A stretch of 49,994 nucleotides of DNA from Myxococcales bacterium. Lineage in GTDB: Bacteria; Myxococcota_A; Polyangia; Polyangiales; Polyangiaceae. Positions 4,511 through 45,445 of the stretch are shown here, piece by piece. The notes below the pieces were generated by a model. It searched no databases, was not told the origin of the DNA, and saw only the letters and a program-made list of their open reading frames with translations. A program made the position numbers and the translations under genes. Where the stretch lies: assembly GCA_013297655.1 (NCBI GenBank), contig JAAFHV010000034.1:1-49994 (forward strand). Reading direction: 5' to 3'. The stretch's first letter is position 1, and each line of letters opens with the position of its first letter.

Positions 4511-5620
4511 ATGCGGTACGCCTTCGTGGGGTTCTTGGTTTTGCACGCACTCATTCACCTTATGGGGTTCGCCAAGGCGTTTGGTTTCGCCACGATGCCG
4601 AACCTCACCGTCCCCATCTCGCGGGCGCTCGGGGTCGTGTGGCTCCTCGCGGCGGTGACGATGCTCGCGGCGGCGGTGCTCTTTCTCGTCGCGCGGCAAG
4701 GGTTTTGGCTCGCTGGAGGCGTAGCGCTCGTGCTGTCGCAGGTCGCCATCGTCTCCTCGTGGCACGACGCCAAGCTCGGCACGCTCGCCAATGTCGTCGT
4801 TTTGGTCGGCGTGGCGCTCGCCTTTGCGTCGCACGGTCCTGCCAGCTTGTGGTCGGAGTACCAGGAGGCCACGAAGGCCTCGTCGGGGCAGACGAGGGAG
4901 CGCTCGGTGGTGCTCGAGGGTGACCTCGCTGCGCTCCCCGCGCCGGTGCAAAGGTACCTCCGCGTGACGGGCACAGTGGGGCAGCCGCGCGTGCACGACT
5001 TCAAGGCCGTGTGGAAGGGGCGAATTCGCGGAGCCGCGGCGGAGGCGTGGATGCCGTTCGACGCCGAGCAGATCAACGTGTTCGGTCCGCAGCCGTCGCG
5101 GCTCTTCTTCATGAGCGCGGCGATGAACGGCCTCCCTGTCAGTGTCTTTCATCGCTTCATAGGCAAAAATGCGACGTTTCGTGTGCGCTTGCTGTCTGCC
5201 TTCACCGTGGTCGACGCGAGAGGCCCGGAGATGGACCGCTCCGAGACGGTGACGCTGTTCAACGACGCGTGCCTGCTCGCGCCGTCGTTGCTGCTCGACC
5301 CTTCCGTAGTTTGGGAGCCGATCGACGCGCACAGCGCTCGCGCGCACTACACACGAGGCGCGGAGACCATCTCCGCCGACCTTCGTTTCGGGGAGAACGG
5401 CGAGCTCGTCGACTTCGTCTCCGACGATCGCTTCGGCGCGTCGGCCGACGGCAAGTCGTTCAAGCGCGCGCGCTGGAGCACACCGGTGAAAGACTACCGC
5501 CCGTTCGGCCCCCGCCGCGTTCCCATCTTCGGCGAAGCACGGTGGGACGACCCCAAAGGCGCGTTCACCTATATCGAGCTCGAGCTCGTCTCGATTGTCT
5601 ACGATTTCGGCTCGCGCTGA
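4511..5620 (+). CDS. DUF6544-like protein with four N-terminal membrane segments
   Basis: A 369-residue protein. About residues 1-110 hold four hydrophobic helices (the first in 'YAFVGFLVLHALIHLMGFAK', the last in 'LANVVVLVGVALAFAS'). The soluble part then starts at 'LPAPVQRYLRVTGTVGQPRV', the typical opening of the DUF6544 family. It continues with 'AEAWMPFDAEQ', 'NDACLLAPSLLLDPSVVWEP' and ends 'IELELVSIVYDFG'. The start at 4511 is chosen because the sequence upstream is Arg-rich and non-protein-like. Function is unknown; the family is common in Actinobacteria and Myxococcota. The gene's last bases overlap an OmpA-like fragment. Confidence 0.8.
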   Translation: MRYAFVGFLVLHALIHLMGFAKAFGFATMPNLTVPISRALGVVWLLAAVTMLAAAVLFLVARQGFWLAGGVALVLSQVAIVSSWHDAKLGTLANVVVLVGVALAFASHGPASLWSEYQEATKASSGQTRERSVVLEGDLAALPAPVQRYLRVTGTVGQPRVHDFKAVWKGRIRGAAAEAWMPFDAEQINVFGPQPSRLFFMSAAMNGLPVSVFHRFIGKNATFRVRLLSAFTVVDARGPEMDRSETVTLFNDACLLAPSLLLDPSVVWEPIDAHSARAHYTRGAETISADLRFGENGELVDFVSDDRFGASADGKSFKRARWSTPVKDYRPFGPRRVPIFGEARWDDPKGAFTYIELELVSIVYDFGSR

Positions 5621-5939
5621 CGTCGTGAGGGGTGGCGTTGATAGCAGCGACGTGGCGACGCAGGATGCGCAAATCCTTTCGCAAATCGCGAAATGCATGA
5701 CGACCGGCCCGCTCGCCGGGCGAACCCTCGAGCTCGTGGGGCGCGCCGATCCGCGCGGCGCCGAGGAGTACAACATGGCCCTCGGTGACCGCCGCGCGAA
5801 CACGATCCGGGACCATCTCTCCGGGCACGGAATGGCGCTCGACAAACTCGCGCCGAGCTCGCGTGGGAAGCTCGACGCGGTCGGTACCGACGAGGATGGT
5901 TGGCAGCGCGACCGTAGGGTCGACATCTCGCTCCGCTGA
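5595..5939 (+). pseudogene. OmpA C-terminal-like domain fragment
   Basis: The frame encodes most of an OmpA/Pal-type peptidoglycan-binding domain: 'LELVGRADPRGAEEYNMALG' and 'RRANTIRDHLSGHGM', ending in '[13 protein letters not shown]'. The expected first strand of the domain and any signal peptide or lipobox are absent. The open frame only begins inside the 3' end of the preceding gene, with TTG 5595 or GTG 5625 as possible starts. Full-length relatives are outer-membrane lipoproteins of roughly 200 residues. The most likely reading is a gene that lost its 5' half when the DUF6544 gene was brought next to it. Translation of the remnant cannot be excluded. Confidence 0.65.
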
Positions 5940-5992
5940 ATCAAGACGAAGCGCGCCCCTGCGACACCGCGAAGCGCTCGCCGCACGCGGCC

Positions 5993-7057
5993 GTGCTCTT
6001 GCAGGTCAGTCTCGTAGGGCGCGCGTCGCTCGTTTGTATCGCGTCATGTCGTGTCGATCCGCCAGCCGAATCCTCGGTCTTGGAGCGAGCCCCGCTCGTC
6101 GACCGGACGATGGAGCCCGTCAAGAAGGCGCTCGCCGACAGCAAGCGTACGATCGAGCAGATCGTCGAGGTCGTGCTCGTCGGCGGATCGACACGCATTC
6201 CCATGGTGCGGGAGCGGGTGAAGGCGTTCTTCGGCCGCGAGCCGCATCAAGGCGTAAACCCGGACGAGGTCGTCGCGGTCGGGGCGGCGGTGCAAGCGGG
6301 CGTGCTCTCCGGCGACGTGAAGGACATGATCCTCCTCGACGTGACTCCACTCTCTCTCGGCATCGAGACGATGGGCGCAGTCATGACGGTCATGATCCCG
6401 CGAAATACGATGCTGCCGACCCAGAAGAAGGAGTCGTTCTCGACTGCGTCCGACAACCAAGGCAGCGTCGAGGTTCACGTCCTGCAGGGCGAACGAGCCG
6501 AATCGAAGGAGAACCGTACCCTCGGCCGCTTCAGCCTCGACGGCATCATGCCTGCTCCGCGCGGGGTCCCGAAGGTCGAGGTGTCGTTCGACATCGACGC
6601 GAATGGCATTCTCTCCGTGAGCGCGAAGGACACCGCGACGGGGAAAGACCAAAGGATTACGATTACGGCGAGCTCGGGGCTAAGCGAGGCCGAAATCCAA
6701 AAGATGGTCCGCGAGGCGGCCGAGCACGAGGTGGACGACAAGGCACGACGAGAGCATGTGCTCCGCAGAAACCAGCTCGACAACCTCTGTTACTCCGTGG
6801 AGCACACCCTCGCCGAGCACAAGGCGAAGCTAGCGCCGGACCACGTCGCGGAGCTCGAGTCCCTCCTTCAGGAGGGTAGGAAAGCGATCGAGCAGCAAGA
6901 CGATGGCGCGGTAACGGCGGGCATCGCGCGACTCGAGAAGGAGGCGCAGCGATTGACGACGTTGGTGCAGGAGAGCACGAGCGCGCAGGCGCCCCCCGTG
7001 GGCAAAGCTCCCCCCGCCGCCGGAAAGCCCGACGTCGTCGACGCCGAGTTCGAATAG
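5993..7057 (+). pseudogene. dnaK: DnaK (Hsp70) lacking most of the ATPase domain
   Basis: DnaK homology begins abruptly at about 6080 ('[18 protein letters not shown]'), equivalent to roughly residue 310 of E. coli DnaK. It continues to the normal C-terminus 'DVVDAEFE'. Present are the last NBD segment ('[13 protein letters not shown]', '[18 protein letters not shown]'), the linker '[12 protein letters not shown]', the substrate-binding beta domain and the helical lid. The phosphate-1 loop and catalytic residues of subdomain I are absent. Upstream of 6080 the frame is unrelated; ATG 6110 is the first plausible start. The remaining 320 codons are undamaged, so the deletion may be recent or the piece may be kept as a substrate-binding protein. 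Confidence 0.82.
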
Positions 7058-40481: not shown

Positions 40482-42062
40482 TCACGCTCCGGGGTCGACC
40501 TTGGGCACCGTGATCACGATCGTCGTCCCGCGGCCGGCGACGGTGCTCACGTTCACCGTGCCGCGTGCGCCTTCGACTGCCCCCTTGACGGCGCCGAGCC
40601 CGATCCCGCGCCCCGAGATGGTGGTCGTGACCTCGGCGGTGGAGATCCCGTCGACGAAAACGAGCCCGAGCGCCTCGTTGCCTTCCGGGGCGCTGATCCC
40701 GCGCTCGTGGGCTTTTGCTCGTACGCGGTCGACGTCGATCCCGCGGCCGTCGTCGGAGAACCGGATCTCGTAGGCGTCGCCGGTCTCCGCGATCGAGAGC
40801 GCGAGCGCGCCTTTGCCCTTGCCCATCCGAAGTTGCGGCGGCTCGATGCCATGGTCGAGCGCGTTGCGGACGAGGTGAGGCACGCCGAGGAGCACCGATC
40901 GCATCGTCGCCGGATCGACGAGGGTCTCGTCGCCGGTGACGGTCAGGGTCACCTCTTTGCCGAGGCGCTCGGCGAGGCGCTCGGTGAAGGTCCGGATCGG
41001 GCCTAGGTAGCGCGACGCCGGGCGCGACAGCACCCGTGTCGTCCACGAGCGGAGCGACGCGGGCGCATCGCGGAGCCCGCTCACGATCGCGCGGAGGTCC
41101 GAGATCTGCGCCGGAGTGACCTCGAACGCACGATCGGCCATCGCGTCGTAGTCGATCTCGAGCACGCTCTCGTTCGACTCGAGGAACGTGCGGAGCGCGT
41201 CCTCGATCCGCGCGAGGGACGCGACGCTCAGGGTGGGCTCTTCTTCCACCGCGTGGCAAGCGTCCGCGGCGTCGACGAGCCCGTACGAGGCGGCGTTGCC
41301 CTTGATCGTGTGGACCACCCGCCTCCGAAGTGCCTCGTCGTCCGGGGCGTCGCGCGCGCTGTCGAGGCCGAAGCGCGCCTCCGACACGAAGGCCTCGAAG
41401 CTCGGTTTCTGCTTCAAGATGCCGACGAGGGTGCGGTGCGCGTGGCTCTCGCGGGTCGCCGTTTCAAGGGCGGTGATGTCCGAAATCGTGACCAGCATCG
41501 AGTCCACCGCGCCGCTCTTGCCGCGAATCACGCTCCCCTCCGCGCGGAGCACCCGCCCGTCCTTCGTGGGGAATCGTTGCTCGAGCTGCCCGAGCGACAC
41601 GTCCTCCGGGAGCAGGTCCTCGAACACCTGATCGATCGCGAGGAGGAGGTGGTCCTTGTCGCGGGGCGCGAGCTGCAAGAGGTCCGGCAGCGAGCGGCCC
41701 TCGACCTCGCCGGTGGCGAATAGCTTCGCGCACGATCGGGTGCTCTCCGGCTCGACGACCGCGTTCCTGTCGATCCGCAAAAACCCGAACGTGACATGGT
41801 CCAAGATCGCCTTGATGGCGTCCGTGCGGCGCGCGACCTCGGCCTCGAGCACGGCGGAGTACTTCGCGAGCTCTGCCGTCCGCACCTCGAGGATTTCCCT
41901 CTTCTTTCGGTTCTCGGCGTCCCGCGCGCGGGCGGCTTGGAGCTTCTCGTGGATGGCAGAGGTGTCGCCGTTGTAGAGCGCGACGACCTTCTTCTTTAGG
42001 ACGTCCACCGTCCGCTCCGCCGCCTCCGCTCTTTCGCGTTCGCTCATGGAATCCGCGCTCAT
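40482..42062 (-). CDS. PAS-Hpt-CheA-like histidine kinase
   Basis: A 526-residue soluble kinase. A coiled coil (about 8-85) precedes a PAS domain (about 85-200; 'DHVTFGFLRIDRNAVVEPES', PAC 'MLVTISDITALETATR'). An Hpt domain follows with phospho-acceptor His251 in 'RRVVHTIKGNAASYGL'. The ATPase domain has the CheA-type N box 'HLVRNALDHGIEPP' (His396, Asn400, His404), G1 'FSDDGRGIDVDRV' and G2 'GRGIGLGAVKGAVE'. It ends without the CheW-like P5 domain, so it should not join a chemoreceptor array as CheA does. Its start (ATGA) overlaps the FIST gene's stop. Divergent CheY and CheX-like genes complete the pathway. Confidence 0.9.
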   Translation of the reverse strand: MSADSMSERERAEAAERTVDVLKKKVVALYNGDTSAIHEKLQAARARDAENRKKREILEVRTAELAKYSAVLEAEVARRTDAIKAILDHVTFGFLRIDRNAVVEPESTRSCAKLFATGEVEGRSLPDLLQLAPRDKDHLLLAIDQVFEDLLPEDVSLGQLEQRFPTKDGRVLRAEGSVIRGKSGAVDSMLVTISDITALETATRESHAHRTLVGILKQKPSFEAFVSEARFGLDSARDAPDDEALRRRVVHTIKGNAASYGLVDAADACHAVEEEPTLSVASLARIEDALRTFLESNESVLEIDYDAMADRAFEVTPAQISDLRAIVSGLRDAPASLRSWTTRVLSRPASRYLGPIRTFTERLAERLGKEVTLTVTGDETLVDPATMRSVLLGVPHLVRNALDHGIEPPQLRMGKGKGALALSIAETGDAYEIRFSDDGRGIDVDRVRAKAHERGISAPEGNEALGLVFVDGISTAEVTTTISGRGIGLGAVKGAVEGARGTVNVSTVAGRGTTIVITVPKVDPGA

Positions 42063-43192
42063 CGTGATCCCCCGAGGGCGATGCCCACGAGCGTCTGGTT
42101 GATGTGGAGGCCGTCGAGCTGCTCGCCGTAGGTGTCGAACCCGATGACGTGCTTCGCCTTCTTTCGCAGGGCGTCGCCGATGGGGCCATGGAGACCGCGT
42201 TTCCGAATCTCGAGCGCGCGGAGGATGCAGTTGAACGCGACGAAGAGCTCGGCCGGCTCACCTCCGTCGGGAGAAAGATCACGCGCGAGCGCTTCGGCCA
42301 TCGGCTCGTGGCCGCCGACCGCGAGCACCATGCCCTCCTCGATTCCGCAGTAAAATACGAGCGAGCCGTCGTCCTCGATTTTCTGGATCGAGCGCACGTA
42401 GAGCTCGCCGCCATACGCGAACGTGAGCGGGTTCATGAAGGTCACGTCGTCCGTGACCTCGCCGCTCGAGAGCCCGAGGGCGGCGGCATAGGCGTGGAGG
42501 GCGGTGCGCCCGTCGATCTCGTACACCCGGCGCTTCTCCACGTCGGCGCGCGTAATCACGAGATCACGCTCCGTGGGTTTGTAATGTTGGTGCTTCACGA
42601 CGTGAAACGGAATCTCGGAGACCGCGAGCAGGAGCACCGCCGCGTTGGTGAGCGCTTCGCCGTTCGCGAAGACGCGCGTCGACTGGAATGCCAAGTCGTC
42701 TCCCGCGCTCCCTCCCACCAGCGGCAGTCCTTCGAGCGCGTCGGCCATCAGCGCGACGACATGCTCTTCTTTCATGCACAAGCCATCCATGAACGTGATG
42801 CAAAAGTGCTTGTTCGGGTCCGCCTGATCGCGCGTGATGCCGAGACGCGCGAAGAGCTCGTCGGCCGTCTTGCGCGCGCTCGCGGCGTCTACTGCTGTCA
42901 TCGACGGCACGACCCCCACCGCCCACCGCACCTCCGGCGACCAAATCGCGGACACGACGAGGGCCCCCGTCGAGAGCTCGCCGTCCACGATTTCGCCCGC
43001 CGTCGTGCAGCCCGCGGTGGGCACTCCCGGGAAGCGCGTCGCGAGCGCGGCCGCTACCTCTCGCGGGTCTTGTTTCGTCGACGCGAAGACCAGCAGCAAG
43101 CTCGGCGCATTTCCATCGCCCATCGCCCGTGTGGCCTCCGCCACCGCCTCGCTCGCCCCCGTCGCCGCGCTCTTCCCCTGAACGACCCGCAT
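42059..43192 (-). CDS. FIST-domain sensor protein
   Basis: A 377-residue protein composed of a FIST N-terminal domain (about 15-215) and a FIST C-terminal domain (about 215-365). Landmarks are 'VFASTKQDPREVAAALATRF', 'GVPTAGCTTAGEIVDGELST', 'LPLVGGSAGDDLAFQSTRVF' and C-terminal 'GFDTYGEQLDGLHINQTLVG'. FIST domains are predicted small-molecule (amino-acid-type) sensors feeding signal transduction. Start ATG 43192 has 'gagagg' upstream and fits the family N-terminus; the 29-residue extension to 43279 is unlikely. Its coupling to the CheA-like kinase makes it the probable input. There is no membrane segment. Confidence 0.9.
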   Translation of the reverse strand: MRVVQGKSAATGASEAVAEATRAMGDGNAPSLLLVFASTKQDPREVAAALATRFPGVPTAGCTTAGEIVDGELSTGALVVSAIWSPEVRWAVGVVPSMTAVDAASARKTADELFARLGITRDQADPNKHFCITFMDGLCMKEEHVVALMADALEGLPLVGGSAGDDLAFQSTRVFANGEALTNAAVLLLAVSEIPFHVVKHQHYKPTERDLVITRADVEKRRVYEIDGRTALHAYAAALGLSSGEVTDDVTFMNPLTFAYGGELYVRSIQKIEDDGSLVFYCGIEEGMVLAVGGHEPMAEALARDLSPDGGEPAELFVAFNCILRALEIRKRGLHGPIGDALRKKAKHVIGFDTYGEQLDGLHINQTLVGIALGGSR

Positions 43193-43249
43193 GGCTGCCT
43201 CTCGGAGGGGCGTTGAAATTCCGCTGCGCGAACGAGACCCCCCTTGTGC

Positions 43250-43279
43250 AAGATTTTCCCGGGTGGAGCTAGGTGTCAA
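43250..43279 (-). promoter_or_regulatory. Candidate sigma-70-type promoter of the FIST-kinase operon
   Basis: On the minus strand an exact TTGACA (43279-43274) is followed, after 18 bases, by AATCTT (43255-43250), a weak -10. A start site near 43243 would leave a leader of about 50 bases before ATG 43192. The region is more AT-rich than its surroundings. Confidence 0.4.
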
Positions 43280-43455
43280 CTACGCCAAAAAATCTTCAAC
43301 GAATACGCACTCCAAGCGACCGCTCCCAGCGCCGAATTCGTATGATCGCCTCGACTCGCGCCCCGCTTGCCGAGCCGCAAAGCGCGCGCGCGAAAGTCGG
43401 ATCGACGGCTTCACCGGGCGAATGAAATCCCGTAGTCTCGAGGTTCGGAGGGACC

Positions 43456-43839
43456 ATGAAAAAGGTCATCGTGGTCGACGACTCGCGCGTTGTTCGTCAG
43501 CAAGTGCGCGCTGCGCTAGCGGAGCTGCCAATCGAGGTCATCGAGGCCGCCGATGGGCAAGAAGGTGAAGCGACCATTCGCGCCGCCGGCAACGCCGCCC
43601 TCGTGATTTGCGACGTGAACATGCCACTCGTCTCCGGCATCATGCTCCTCCGTAACCTTAAGGCAGACCCCGCCACGAAAGACGTGCCGGTCCTCATGCT
43701 CACCACCGAGGGGCACCCCGATCTCGTCCGCGAGGCGCGTCAGCTCGGCGCGGTTGGCTGGCTCGTGAAGCCGTTCAAACCGAACTTGCTCGTCGAAGCA
43801 GTCAAGAAGCTCGCGAAGCTCGGCGAGGTAACACCATGA
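43456..43839 (+). CDS. CheY-like single-domain response regulator
   Basis: A 127-residue receiver-only protein. It has the acidic pair Asp8-Asp9 ('IVVDDSRVV'), phospho-acceptor Asp53 ('VICDVNMPLVSG'), Thr83 ('LMLTTEGHPD') and Lys105 ('WLVKPFKPN'). A ribosome site 'ggaggg' lies six bases before ATG 43456. The stop overlaps the start of the CheX-like gene (ATGA), so the two are coupled. It is probably phosphorylated by the divergent CheA-like kinase and dephosphorylated by the CheX-like protein. No DNA-binding domain is present. Confidence 0.93.
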   Translation: MKKVIVVDDSRVVRQQVRAALAELPIEVIEAADGQEGEATIRAAGNAALVICDVNMPLVSGIMLLRNLKADPATKDVPVLMLTTEGHPDLVREARQLGAVGWLVKPFKPNLLVEAVKKLAKLGEVTP

Positions 43840-44381
43840 AGCCGCTCACGCTCTCCCCCGAGACGCTCGCCGGGTTCGACGCCGCCGTCGTCGAAGCGAC
43901 GGTCCAGGTCTTCGGCAGCTACGGCCTCGTCCTCGAGCCTATCGACCACAGCGGCGAGCCCGATCATGAGCTTGCATGTTGCATCGGTTTCACCAGCGCC
44001 GACGTCCAGGGCGCGTTCCTCATGACGAGCACGAAGACGGTGGTCGTCTCGGCTTGGCCAGAAGAAATCGCGGTGCCGACTGCCTCCGACGTGAACATCG
44101 CGGATTGGTTCGGAGAGCTCTCGAATCAGGTGTTCGGGCGCGCCCGCTCCACCCTGAACCCGCGCGGTTTTGCGGTCAGCCAGGGCACGCCGGCGCTCAT
44201 CTACGGCATCTCGCTCCGTCGCTCGCGGCGGCAGACCACGCTCGCGCGCGAGCTCTCCTTCGTCGCGCCATCGGGCGACTTGCTCCGCGTCTACCTCGAC
44301 GCCGTCTTCGCGAAGCCGTTCGAGCTCTCGGCGACCCCCGACGAAGGACACCTCGGGCCCGGCGAGGTGAGCCTGTTTTGA
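43836..44381 (+). CDS. CheX-like chemotaxis phosphatase
   Basis: A 181-residue protein with a CheX/CheC-type fold. The phosphatase helix reads 'DWFGELSNQVFGRARSTL'; the Glu and Asn four positions apart ('ELxNxxxG') are the catalytic pair of CheX, CheC and CheZ-like enzymes. 'ACCIGFTSADVQGAFLM' forms the preceding beta region and 'RVYLDAVF' a later strand. It should hydrolyse phospho-Asp of the neighbouring CheY-like protein, to whose gene it is fused by an ATGA overlap. The downstream phosphatase gene starts inside its stop codon (TTGA). Confidence 0.8.
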   Translation: MKPLTLSPETLAGFDAAVVEATVQVFGSYGLVLEPIDHSGEPDHELACCIGFTSADVQGAFLMTSTKTVVVSAWPEEIAVPTASDVNIADWFGELSNQVFGRARSTLNPRGFAVSQGTPALIYGISLRRSRRQTTLARELSFVAPSGDLLRVYLDAVFAKPFELSATPDEGHLGPGEVSLF

Positions 44382-45445
44382 GCGCGTCATCGTCCAGCGT
44401 GTGGCACGAGCCCTCGGACTGGCTCGCCGAGGCGAACGGTCTTCGAACGAGCCTATCGACGGTTCGTCGCGCGCTCGGACTGGCGCCAGGGGGGCCGCCA
44501 CGAGACGCGGCCTCGGCGGTCGACGCGCTCGAGAGCTGGCTCGCGCGGGCGAGGCTCGAGTGGCCCACCGGCGAGCACGCGGTGGCCCCGCTCGTCTCGC
44601 CTCTCGCCGAGCTCCTCGTCGTCGCGAGCCTGCCTCCCGTCACTCACGTCCACAACGTCGCGGAGGTGGTCGACCTGGTCGAGCGCGTCGCGCGCAAGCT
44701 TCGCCACCACGCCGAAGAAGACGACCTCCATCGCCGCGATCTGCGCCGCGCAGGGGAGCTCCAAGCGGCGATGCTCGTCGGAAAGGTGCCCGCCGCGCGC
44801 CTCACGTTCGACCATGTCTACCGTCCGCTCGAGGCGATCGGCGGCGACTACTTCGACGTACATCGCCTATCGAACGACAAAACGAGGCTGTTCGTCGCCG
44901 ACATCGCCGGTCATGGCGTGCGCGCGGCGATGTCGACGATGCTGTTGAAGGCCGAGTACGAAGCGGAGAAGCGCAGCACACCTCACGCGCGCGATCTCCT
45001 GTATCGGTTGAACAGCGCGCTCTTGCGTCGGTTCCCTGCGCGCTCGCTCGTGCTCACCGCGGTCTGCGTCGACATCGAAGGCGCGACCGGGCGCTTCGAT
45101 TACGCCACTGCCGCCCACCCTTCGCCGCTGCGTGTCGGCAGCGAGACCGGCGCGCTCGACACGGGCGGCGCGTTCATCGGTATCTCTCGGCGCGCCGATT
45201 TTTTCCATGGATCGGGCACCCTCGCGGAGGGCGACGGCCTCTACTTGCTCACCGATGGTGTCATCGACGCGTGCGATCCGAGCGGCGAAATGTACGGCGA
45301 GGAGCGCGCGCTCGCCGCGCTCTCGGTGTCGGCTACGGCCGGCGCGAACGAGCTCTATGCCGACGTGCTCGCGTTCGTCGCGGGTCGCGCGCCGGCGGAC
45401 GACTTGGCGATCTTGGGCGCCCGCCTCCGCTCTCCCACGGCCTGA
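44378..45445 (+). CDS. SpoIIE/RsbU-type PP2C serine phosphatase
   Basis: A 355-residue protein. An N-terminal helical region of about 130 residues (with a coiled coil around 'VVDLVERVARKLRHHAEEDD') precedes the PP2C-like SpoIIE domain: 'LEAIGGDYFDVHRL' (metal Asp), 'RLFVADIAGHGVRAAMSTML', 'LYLLTDGVIDACDPSGEMYG' and 'ADDLAILGARL' (metal Asp-Asp). Such enzymes act on phosphoserine of anti-anti-sigma factors or similar. The start is TTG 44378, overlapping the CheX-like stop, with 'gcgaggtga' upstream; no ATG is available. It is the output end of this signalling cluster; no STAS-domain substrate gene is seen nearby. Confidence 0.87.
   Translation: MSASSSSVWHEPSDWLAEANGLRTSLSTVRRALGLAPGGPPRDAASAVDALESWLARARLEWPTGEHAVAPLVSPLAELLVVASLPPVTHVHNVAEVVDLVERVARKLRHHAEEDDLHRRDLRRAGELQAAMLVGKVPAARLTFDHVYRPLEAIGGDYFDVHRLSNDKTRLFVADIAGHGVRAAMSTMLLKAEYEAEKRSTPHARDLLYRLNSALLRRFPARSLVLTAVCVDIEGATGRFDYATAAHPSPLRVGSETGALDTGGAFIGISRRADFFHGSGTLAEGDGLYLLTDGVIDACDPSGEMYGEERALAALSVSATAGANELYADVLAFVAGRAPADDLAILGARLRSPTA

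What the first reader, a model, noticed from the sequence alone, without database searches (positions are those of the whole stretch)
40482..45445. Compact FIST - CheA-like kinase // CheY - CheX-like - RsbU-type phosphatase pathway
Two divergent, translationally coupled units encode a complete circuit. FIST is the ligand sensor, and the PAS-Hpt kinase has no CheW domain. CheY is a lone receiver, CheX-like its phosphatase, and the SpoIIE-type PP2C a Ser/Thr output. No chemoreceptor, CheW, CheR or CheB is present, so it is not ordinary chemotaxis. It would link small-molecule sensing by FIST to serine dephosphorylation through a His-Asp relay. I know of no named system with exactly this set.
Basis: partly seen in the sequence, partly recalled or inferred. 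Interest (0 to 1): 0.65.

Follow-up and report, generated by a model that had tools for sequence, protein, structure and literature searches.

The report
FIST-gated CheA-like kinase signalling cassette
A myxobacterial gene cluster appears to wire a gas-sensor-like protein to a chemotaxis-type kinase, its messenger and reset phosphatase, and a serine phosphatase, forming a signalling cassette related to known nitric-oxide sensing systems but built from different parts.

Summary
The five genes are real and look intact: kinase←FIST, diverging from CheY→CheX→PP2C, with 4-nt overlaps. FIST more likely starts at 43192 than 43279.

All 18 genomes found with this kinase at full length (590 bits or more) have FIST next door, but most were found through FIST; in the kinase-only search it is 11 of 11 (8 helped build the profile). 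In 8 of 18, CheX and a lone CheY are beside the pair, seven times co-oriented; in 10 they are not. One relative fuses FIST to a CheA-like kinase beside CheY and CheX.

The PP2C is the weak link: near the pair in 2 of 18. FIST does meet such phosphatases elsewhere: FIST-PP2C-STAS-RsbW in one genome, REC-PP2C directly before FIST in this genome, and PP2C-REC-FIST-hybrid kinase in a third.

Closest known are NosP-NahK/NosK and the Pseudomonas HptB-HsbR-HsbA partner switch; published papers read together already describe a FIST-to-PP2C relay. New here are the CheW-less CheA-like kinase, CheX, and a kinase N-terminal segment shared with FIST-linked kinases of another type. Ligand, phosphotransfer and PP2C target are inferred. 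New variant of a known kind.

The parts
40482..42062 (-). CheA-like histidine kinase, 526 aa: N-terminal helical segment, PAS-like region, Hpt, CheA-type P4 ATPase; no CheW/P5 domain
   Evidence: Pfam Hpt and HATPase_c; family profile A1 finds CheA chains from 6e-53; no CheW match
41823..42062 (-). kinase residues 1-80: candidate FIST-docking segment (..AAERTVDVLKKKVVALYNG..)
   Evidence: shared by CheA-like and hybrid HisKA kinases next to FIST
41190..41366 (-). Hpt domain; candidate phospho-accepting His251 at 41310-41312
   Evidence: Pfam PF01627; H251, T252, K254, G255 invariant in 14 of 14
40500..40877 (-). P4/HATPase domain with N400, H404, D437-D438-G439, G484-R485-G486 invariant
   Evidence: Pfam PF02518; alignment A1 of 14
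42059..43192 (-).
   Evidence: Pfam FIST_N and FIST_C; NCBIfam NosP 314 bits, cut-off 450; AlphaFold mean pLDDT 95
43193..43455 (.). divergent intergenic region between the two units
   Evidence: sequence; no sigma-70 consensus match found
43456..43839 (+). single-domain response regulator (CheY-like), 127 aa; D53 codon at 43612-43614
   Evidence: Pfam PF00072; D9, D53, T83, K105 invariant in 8 of 8 aligned
43836..44381 (+). CheX-like phosphatase, 181 aa; E94 at 44115-44117 and N97 at 44124-44126
   Evidence: profile against PDB CheX; E and N of ExxN in 31 of 31 distinct sequences, window included
44378..45445 (+). SpoIIE/RsbU-type PP2C Ser/Thr phosphatase, 355 aa, TTG start in overlap; no receiver domain
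   Evidence: Pfam PF07228; G156 D157, D175, D293, D341 D342 invariant in 13 of 13; SiaA-PP2C Z 27.5, rmsd 2.2, 236 aligned
44414..44776 (+). all-helical N-terminal region of the PP2C (model residues 13-133), candidate CheY contact
   Evidence: AlphaFold model, pLDDT blocks 56-79 here; no convincing relative in 144 genomes (best other E 6e-4)

Best explanation
It is a cytoplasmic, receptor-free CheA-CheX-CheY cassette in which a NosP-related FIST protein replaces the chemoreceptor array, with a serine phosphatase as the local output. Likely working: FIST (perhaps with haem and nitric oxide, like NosP) binds the kinase's N-terminal helical segment and sets its autophosphorylation; the P4 domain phosphorylates His251 of the Hpt domain; the phosphate passes to Asp53 of CheY; CheX (E94, N97) removes it and resets the signal. 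CheY or CheY~P then binds the helical N-terminus of the PP2C and switches it, so that it dephosphorylates a STAS-type antagonist encoded elsewhere (candidates on contigs C6 and C261) and shifts a partner switch. Shown: genes, conserved family residues, overlaps, recurrence of FIST-kinase and of kinase-CheX-CheY, and a natural FIST-kinase fusion. Inferred: ligand, every protein contact, phosphotransfer, direction of the switch, and the PP2C target.
For: FIST next to this kinase in 18 of 18 genomes at >=590 bits; 11 of 11 in the kinase-only search of 377 genomes, 8 of which had helped build the profile. CheX plus lone CheY beside them in 8 of 18, in three gene arrangements. FIST-Hpt-HATPase fusion of 1092 aa with CheY and CheX beside it. 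Of 20 loci taken around top CheX hits, 19 have a receiver domain next door and 11 a related CheA-like kinase within 1 kb of the pair. ExxN kept in 31 of 31 distinct sequences. FIST-PP2C neighbourhoods: FIST-PP2C-STAS-RsbW-like with 4-nt overlaps of the predicted genes; REC-PP2C directly before FIST in this genome with STAS and RsbW-like genes on the same contig; AAA-GAF-PP2C, REC, FIST, hybrid kinase on one strand. This genome has 4 FIST and 6 SpoIIE matches, two pairs adjacent; random placement gives two or more with P ~1e-4 and one or more with 0.017 (the first pair was given by the finding).
Against: PP2C is within 3 kb in only 2 of 18 kinase loci, and in one of those (L139) it is a REC-PP2C separated by a gene on the other strand. 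Ten of 18 FIST-kinase pairs have no CheX or CheY beside them. Of the 60 loci taken by FIST score alone, 1 has a PP2C within 3 kb. The window PP2C lacks a receiver domain. FIST scores 314 against NosP's cut-off of 450 and lies outside the clade of the two annotated NosPs. No STAS gene is in the cluster. The docking segment was not found in the annotated NahK kinases tested.
Confidence: 0.55

Rival explanations
1. FIST, kinase, CheY and CheX form one pathway, but the PP2C is only co-transcribed and CheY acts on another target, as in the relatives that have no PP2C beside them.
For: 16 of 18 kinase loci lack a PP2C within 3 kb; CheX-receiver pairs occur with other kinases and without a PP2C match.
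Against: 4-nt overlap of CheX and PP2C; FIST-PP2C neighbourhoods in other loci with different architectures.
Confidence: 0.28
2. FIST regulates the PP2C directly, and the kinase arm serves another output.
For: L140 holds FIST-PP2C-STAS-RsbW-like as one overlapping run without a kinase inside it.
Against: Here PP2C overlaps CheX, not FIST; the FIST of L140 belongs to a distant branch; FIST-kinase linkage is far stronger.
Confidence: 0.09
3. Two unrelated divergent units that happen to be neighbours.
For: Divergent orientation; 10 of 18 FIST-kinase pairs lack CheX and CheY nearby, and CheX-receiver pairs occur without FIST.
Against: Seven relatives carry all four genes co-oriented (L127, L129, L130, L010, L133, L138, L139); a FIST-kinase fusion sits beside CheY and CheX; a related kinase diverges from REC-CheX in L280.
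Confidence: 0.05

Closest known systems
NosP-NahK / NosP-NosK-NosR (FIST-type nitric oxide sensor with a histidine kinase)
   Same: FIST protein next to, and predicted to control, a soluble kinase; full-length match to NCBIfam NosP. PMC12570481 (passages and one section read): NosP controls NosK autophosphorylation in an NO-dependent manner.
   Different: Below NosP's cut-off and outside the clade of the annotated NosPs; kinase is CheA-like (Hpt-P4) instead of DHp/HisKA; beside it are a lone CheY, CheX and PP2C instead of a c-di-GMP-type regulator; haem untested.
P. aeruginosa NahK-HptB-HsbR-HsbA relay and partner switch
   Same: FIST-controlled kinase, Hpt step, receiver, PP2C acting on an anti-sigma antagonist (PMC11784011 and PMC6482189, passages read).
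   Different: HsbR fuses REC, PP2C and kinase domains; here CheY, CheX and PP2C are separate, Hpt is inside the kinase, and no STAS gene is linked.
Chemosensory CheA-CheY-CheX
   Same: Hpt, CheA-type P4, CheY and CheX with intact ExxN.
   Different: No CheW/P5 domain in the kinase and no receptor or CheW match on the contig; PMC10782961 (passages read) defines P1, P3, P4 and P5 as the CheA core.
RsbU / SiaA / RssB-type PP2C phosphatases
   Same: SpoIIE-type PP2C; SiaA-PP2C Z 27.5 (rmsd 2.2, 236 aligned), RsbU domain of Rv1364c Z 26.9 (rmsd 2.1, 216 aligned).
   Different: N-terminus is a helical region without a convincing relative in 144 genomes, not a receiver.

Membership tests
NosP (NCBIfam NF041558) | score over the curated cut-off of 450 bits | tested here: not met
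   314.3 bits over profile 3-368/368
NosP (NCBIfam NF041558) | inside the clade of annotated NosPs | tested here: not met
   48-row tree: window in a 33-row clade (100/99); five plasmid FIST rows, of which two (Azospirillum) are annotated NosP, in another of 10 (99/99)
NosP (NCBIfam NF041558) | FIST_N + FIST_C next to a histidine kinase gene | tested here: met
NosP (NCBIfam NF041558) | haem and NO binding | not testable with these tools
   H363 is invariant in 31 of 31 aligned rows, but I know of no proven ligand residue
CheA | P1/Hpt with phospho-His and CheA-type P4 | tested here: met
CheA | P5/CheW domain | tested here: not met
   no Pfam CheW match in the kinase; none of the genome's four CheW matches is on C268
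CheA | P3 dimerisation domain | tested here: inconclusive
   no Pfam match; profile aligns to CheA chain 6s1k from its residue 284
CheX | Pfam PF13690 over its cut-off | tested here: not met
   24.1 bits, cut-off 27; a relative in L272 scores 32.7
CheX | homology to solved CheX and ExxN catalytic pair | tested here: met
   that ExxN is catalytic is recalled
CheX | CheY~P phosphatase activity | not testable with these tools
   needs assay
SpoIIE/RsbU-type PP2C | SpoIIE domain with conserved acidic residues | tested here: met
HsbR/CrsR-type response regulator | receiver fused to PP2C | tested here: not met
   no receiver in the window PP2C; present in L139 and L146
partner switch | linked STAS antagonist and RsbW-type kinase | tested here: not met
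   none on C268; STAS matches are on C6, C261, C213 (PF01740) and C6, C522, C213 (PF13466); none of 32 HATPase_c_2 matches is on C268

The most novel reading that the evidence does not exclude
Myxobacteria and relatives carry a class of CheA-CheX-CheY cassettes that dispense with chemoreceptors and CheW and take plug-in sensors (FIST, NIT-HAMP, HAMP-PAS); in the FIST version a short N-terminal segment shared across two kinase types docks FIST, and in some genomes the output is a partner switch, so a gas-type signal is turned into sigma-factor control with a chemotaxis-style reset.
Probability: 0.3. Interest if true: 0.7.

Novelty: new variant of a known kind. Interest (0 to 1): 0.5.

Why it matters
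It would show that the CheA-CheY-CheX core can work without receptor arrays as a plug-in relay, that FIST/NosP-type sensors are not tied to one kinase type, and how an auxiliary sensor finds its kinase (a short transferable segment). A CheA survey that takes P5 as core (PMC10782961, passages read) would by that definition not count such kinases. The docking idea is directly testable with purified proteins.

Tried and rejected
Ordinary chemotaxis: rejected, no CheW domain in the kinase and no CheW or MCPsignal match on the contig. Plain NosP: rejected as a membership claim. Docking segment outside its own clade: not detectable in two annotated NahK kinases (Azospirillum), a Salipiger PAS kinase and the Halomonas ORF behind FIST; the Paroceanicella NahK was cut at its N-terminus, so it tests nothing. 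Another Halomonas kinase ORF, upstream of FIST, gave 9.1 bits (E 7e-4 against nine sequences) at an inner stretch, lost with the widened model (E 0.18). Relative of the PP2C N-terminus: none convincing in 144 genomes. FIST with a solved structure by sequence: no hit; by fold it matches FBXO22 (best E 4e-8, TM by query 0.45-0.52) and, more weakly, Toblerone-fold enzymes. Sigma-70 scan: nothing found. The PP2C N-terminus was not fold-searched alone (one search covers mostly 125-354).

Print: whose lists are shown in full, hold no paper on FIST with CheX or RsbU/SpoIIE signalling by title and abstract; PMC5013675 (a c-di-GMP receptor paper, listing only) holds the words CheX and FIST once each and was not read. 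Searches showed capped or merged lists. The library lacks most subscription journals; the 2007 FIST paper (recalled) and the 2017 and 2023 NosP papers were not read.

Counting limits: 13 of the 14 kinases of profile A1 came from a FIST search (the other is the window's), so FIST adjacency is built in for them, and G122 was also found through FIST. One search scored only three candidates per genome. The 78 FIST loci are not a random sample: several (L139, L140, L146) were fetched because a PP2C was seen near; of the 60 taken by FIST score (some listed rows were skipped), 1 had a PP2C within 3 kb. CheX loci were the best hits of a profile built from CheX genes beside FIST kinases. Of the 19 receivers next to CheX, that of L269 lies in a longer frame, and starts in L270, L275 and L280 are not settled; of the 11 kinases, that of L276 is a 36-bit piece at a contig end. 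Partial kinases at contig ends (L019, L030, L031, L281, L282) and L137 (459 bits, no FIST in its 7-kb contig, no N-terminal segment, one side cut) are outside the 18.
Full report
The window is a whole contig (C268, 49,994 bases) of a 9.9 Mb draft genome of 546 contigs. The named loci with the closest FIST are Myxococcota. FIST/kinase, CheY/CheX and CheX/PP2C overlap by 4 nt. Domains: Hpt + HATPase_c, FIST_N + FIST_C, receiver, CheX (below cut-off) and SpoIIE.

Catalytic parts look intact. His251 of the Hpt, the N-box (N400, H404) and the G-boxes of P4 are invariant in 14 aligned kinases; the profile's best solved matches are CheA chains (6s1k 6e-53). CheY keeps D9, D53, T83 and K105 in 8 of 8. 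The E and N of CheX's ExxN are kept in 31 of 31 distinct sequences. The PP2C keeps its acidic residues in 13 of 13. That these are the catalytic residues is recalled family knowledge. The kinase has no CheW domain, and no CheW or MCPsignal match lies on the contig.

FIST and kinase belong together. A kinase-only search of 377 genomes of the phylum at E 1e-60 (three candidates scored per genome) gave matches in 32; the 11 that score at least 590 bits all have FIST next door. Eight of the 11 helped to build the profile, so G002, G005 and G182 are the new ones. Adding loci found through FIST gives 18 of 18 genomes; in one, G122, the kinase comes before FIST. The next one down, G009 (459 bits), has no FIST in its 7-kb contig and also lacks the kinase's N-terminal segment. 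In G138 a more distant FIST and an Hpt-HATPase kinase are one 1092-residue protein, tail to tail with a receiver and CheX.

CheX and CheY often go with them. They sit beside FIST-kinase in 8 of 18 genomes: the window (divergent), L138, L139, L129 and L133 (FIST-kinase-CheX-CheY), and L127, L130 and L010 (CheY-CheX-FIST-kinase). In ten they are absent nearby; one of these (L144) ends at a contig edge. Of 144 genomes of the order, 36 have a CheX relative at E 1e-6. Around 20 of the best CheX hits, 19 have a receiver domain next door and 11 a related CheA-like kinase within 1 kb of the pair; those scanned carry HAMP, NIT or PAS-like sensor parts, and one the FIST fusion. A CheW-less kinase-CheX-CheY cassette with exchangeable sensors therefore recurs in this order.

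The PP2C is the open question. Only the window and L139 have one near this kinase, and in L139 it carries its own receiver and is parted by a radical-SAM gene. But FIST meets this phosphatase type elsewhere: L140 holds FIST, PP2C, STAS (21.2 bits, cut-off 22.6) and an RsbW-like ATPase (20.1 bits, cut-off 26.4) with overlapping predicted ends; on contig C6 of this genome a REC-PP2C lies directly before a FIST gene cut by the contig end, with STAS, RsbW-like and hybrid-kinase genes on the same contig; L150 has AAA-GAF-PP2C, receiver, FIST and a HisKA-REC-Hpt kinase on one strand. This genome has 4 FIST and 6 SpoIIE matches; two adjacent pairs would arise by random placement with P about 1e-4, one or more with 0.017, and one pair was given by the finding. 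Of 60 loci chosen by FIST score, only one has a PP2C within 3 kb, so the link is occasional.

The PP2C model has a helical N-terminus (residues 13-133, pLDDT blocks 56-79) and a confident PP2C domain, closest to SiaA-PP2C (Z 27.5, rmsd 2.2, 236 aligned) and the RsbU domain of Rv1364c (Z 26.9, rmsd 2.1, 216 aligned). It has no receiver, so CheY would have to act in trans. STAS candidates in this genome are few: C6, C261 (next to the PP2C most like the window's) and C522; the 652-aa C213 hit may be a transporter, which I did not test.

Sensor side. The FIST matches NCBIfam NosP over its full length but at 314 bits against a cut-off of 450. In a 48-row tree it lies in a clade of 33 FIST proteins (100/99), mostly with CheA-like partners or Mariprofundaceae hybrid kinases, apart from a clade of ten that holds the two annotated NosPs (99/99); in two Azospirillum plasmids NosP stands before a 'NahK/ErcS family' kinase. 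The first ~55 residues of the CheA-like kinases recur in HisKA hybrid kinases next to FIST in Mariprofundaceae and a gammaproteobacterium: eight loci at E 1.5e-6 to 0.012, two more at 0.11 and 0.15; the best reversed-ORF hit has E 0.035, so the last two are no better than that control. All 41 hits among 13,155 ORFs lie next to a FIST, but the ORFs come largely from FIST loci and some loci repeat a genome. A 57-residue free copy lies between two FIST genes in L019. The segment was not found in the NahK proteins tested.

What it works like. In P. aeruginosa NosP acts on the co-cistronic kinase NahK, which passes phosphate to HptB (PMC11784011, passages), and HptB drives HsbR, a REC-PP2C-kinase that sets HsbA (PMC6482189, passages). 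NosP of B. pseudomallei controls NosK autophosphorylation (PMC12570481, passages and one section). Legionella Hnox2 is upstream of a kinase and a CheY-like lone receiver of unknown target (PMC11237717, passages). So a FIST-to-PP2C relay has precedent; for FIST with a CheA-like kinase, separate CheX and lone CheY I found none in the papers searched (some lists capped).

Verdict: a real, recurrent FIST-kinase-CheX-CheY cassette, with a plausible but less certain PP2C output. New variant of a known kind; interest 0.5.

Noticed in passing
L272:6449-9727 (-), 5520-5909 (+), 5819-6433 (+): Natural fusion of FIST with an Hpt-HATPase kinase (1092 aa), tail to tail with a lone receiver and a CheX-like gene; a second CheX-like gene at 4791-5309 (-).
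   Followed up: partly
window:41823-42062 (-); L012, L013, L015, L016, L020, L023, L026, L044; L019:1566-1748: N-terminal segment shared by CheA-like and hybrid HisKA kinases next to FIST, and a free-standing 57-residue copy between two FIST genes.
   Followed up: partly
L140:9368-12349 (+): FIST-PP2C-STAS-RsbW-like run with 4-nt overlaps of the predicted genes and no kinase inside it.
   Followed up: partly
L286:1786-7364 (contig C6 of this genome): RsbW-like, STAS, hybrid kinase, REC-PP2C and FIST genes together, a second possible FIST-to-partner-switch locus in the same genome; FIST is cut by the contig end.
   Followed up: partly
L141:4-3251 (contig C327 of this genome): A further FIST gene followed by a GAF-Hpt-HATPase kinase.
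   Followed up: partly
L150:210-8144 (+): AAA-GAF-SpoIIE protein, lone receiver, FIST and HisKA-REC-Hpt hybrid kinase on one strand.
   Followed up: partly
window:42059-43192 (-), FIST model: The FIST model resembles FBXO22 and, more weakly, Toblerone-fold cyclic amide hydrolases and chorismatase.
   Followed up: no
L165-L184: In 13 of these 20 FIST loci three to four receiver domains lie in a row near FIST, probably hybrid kinases with several receivers.
   Followed up: no
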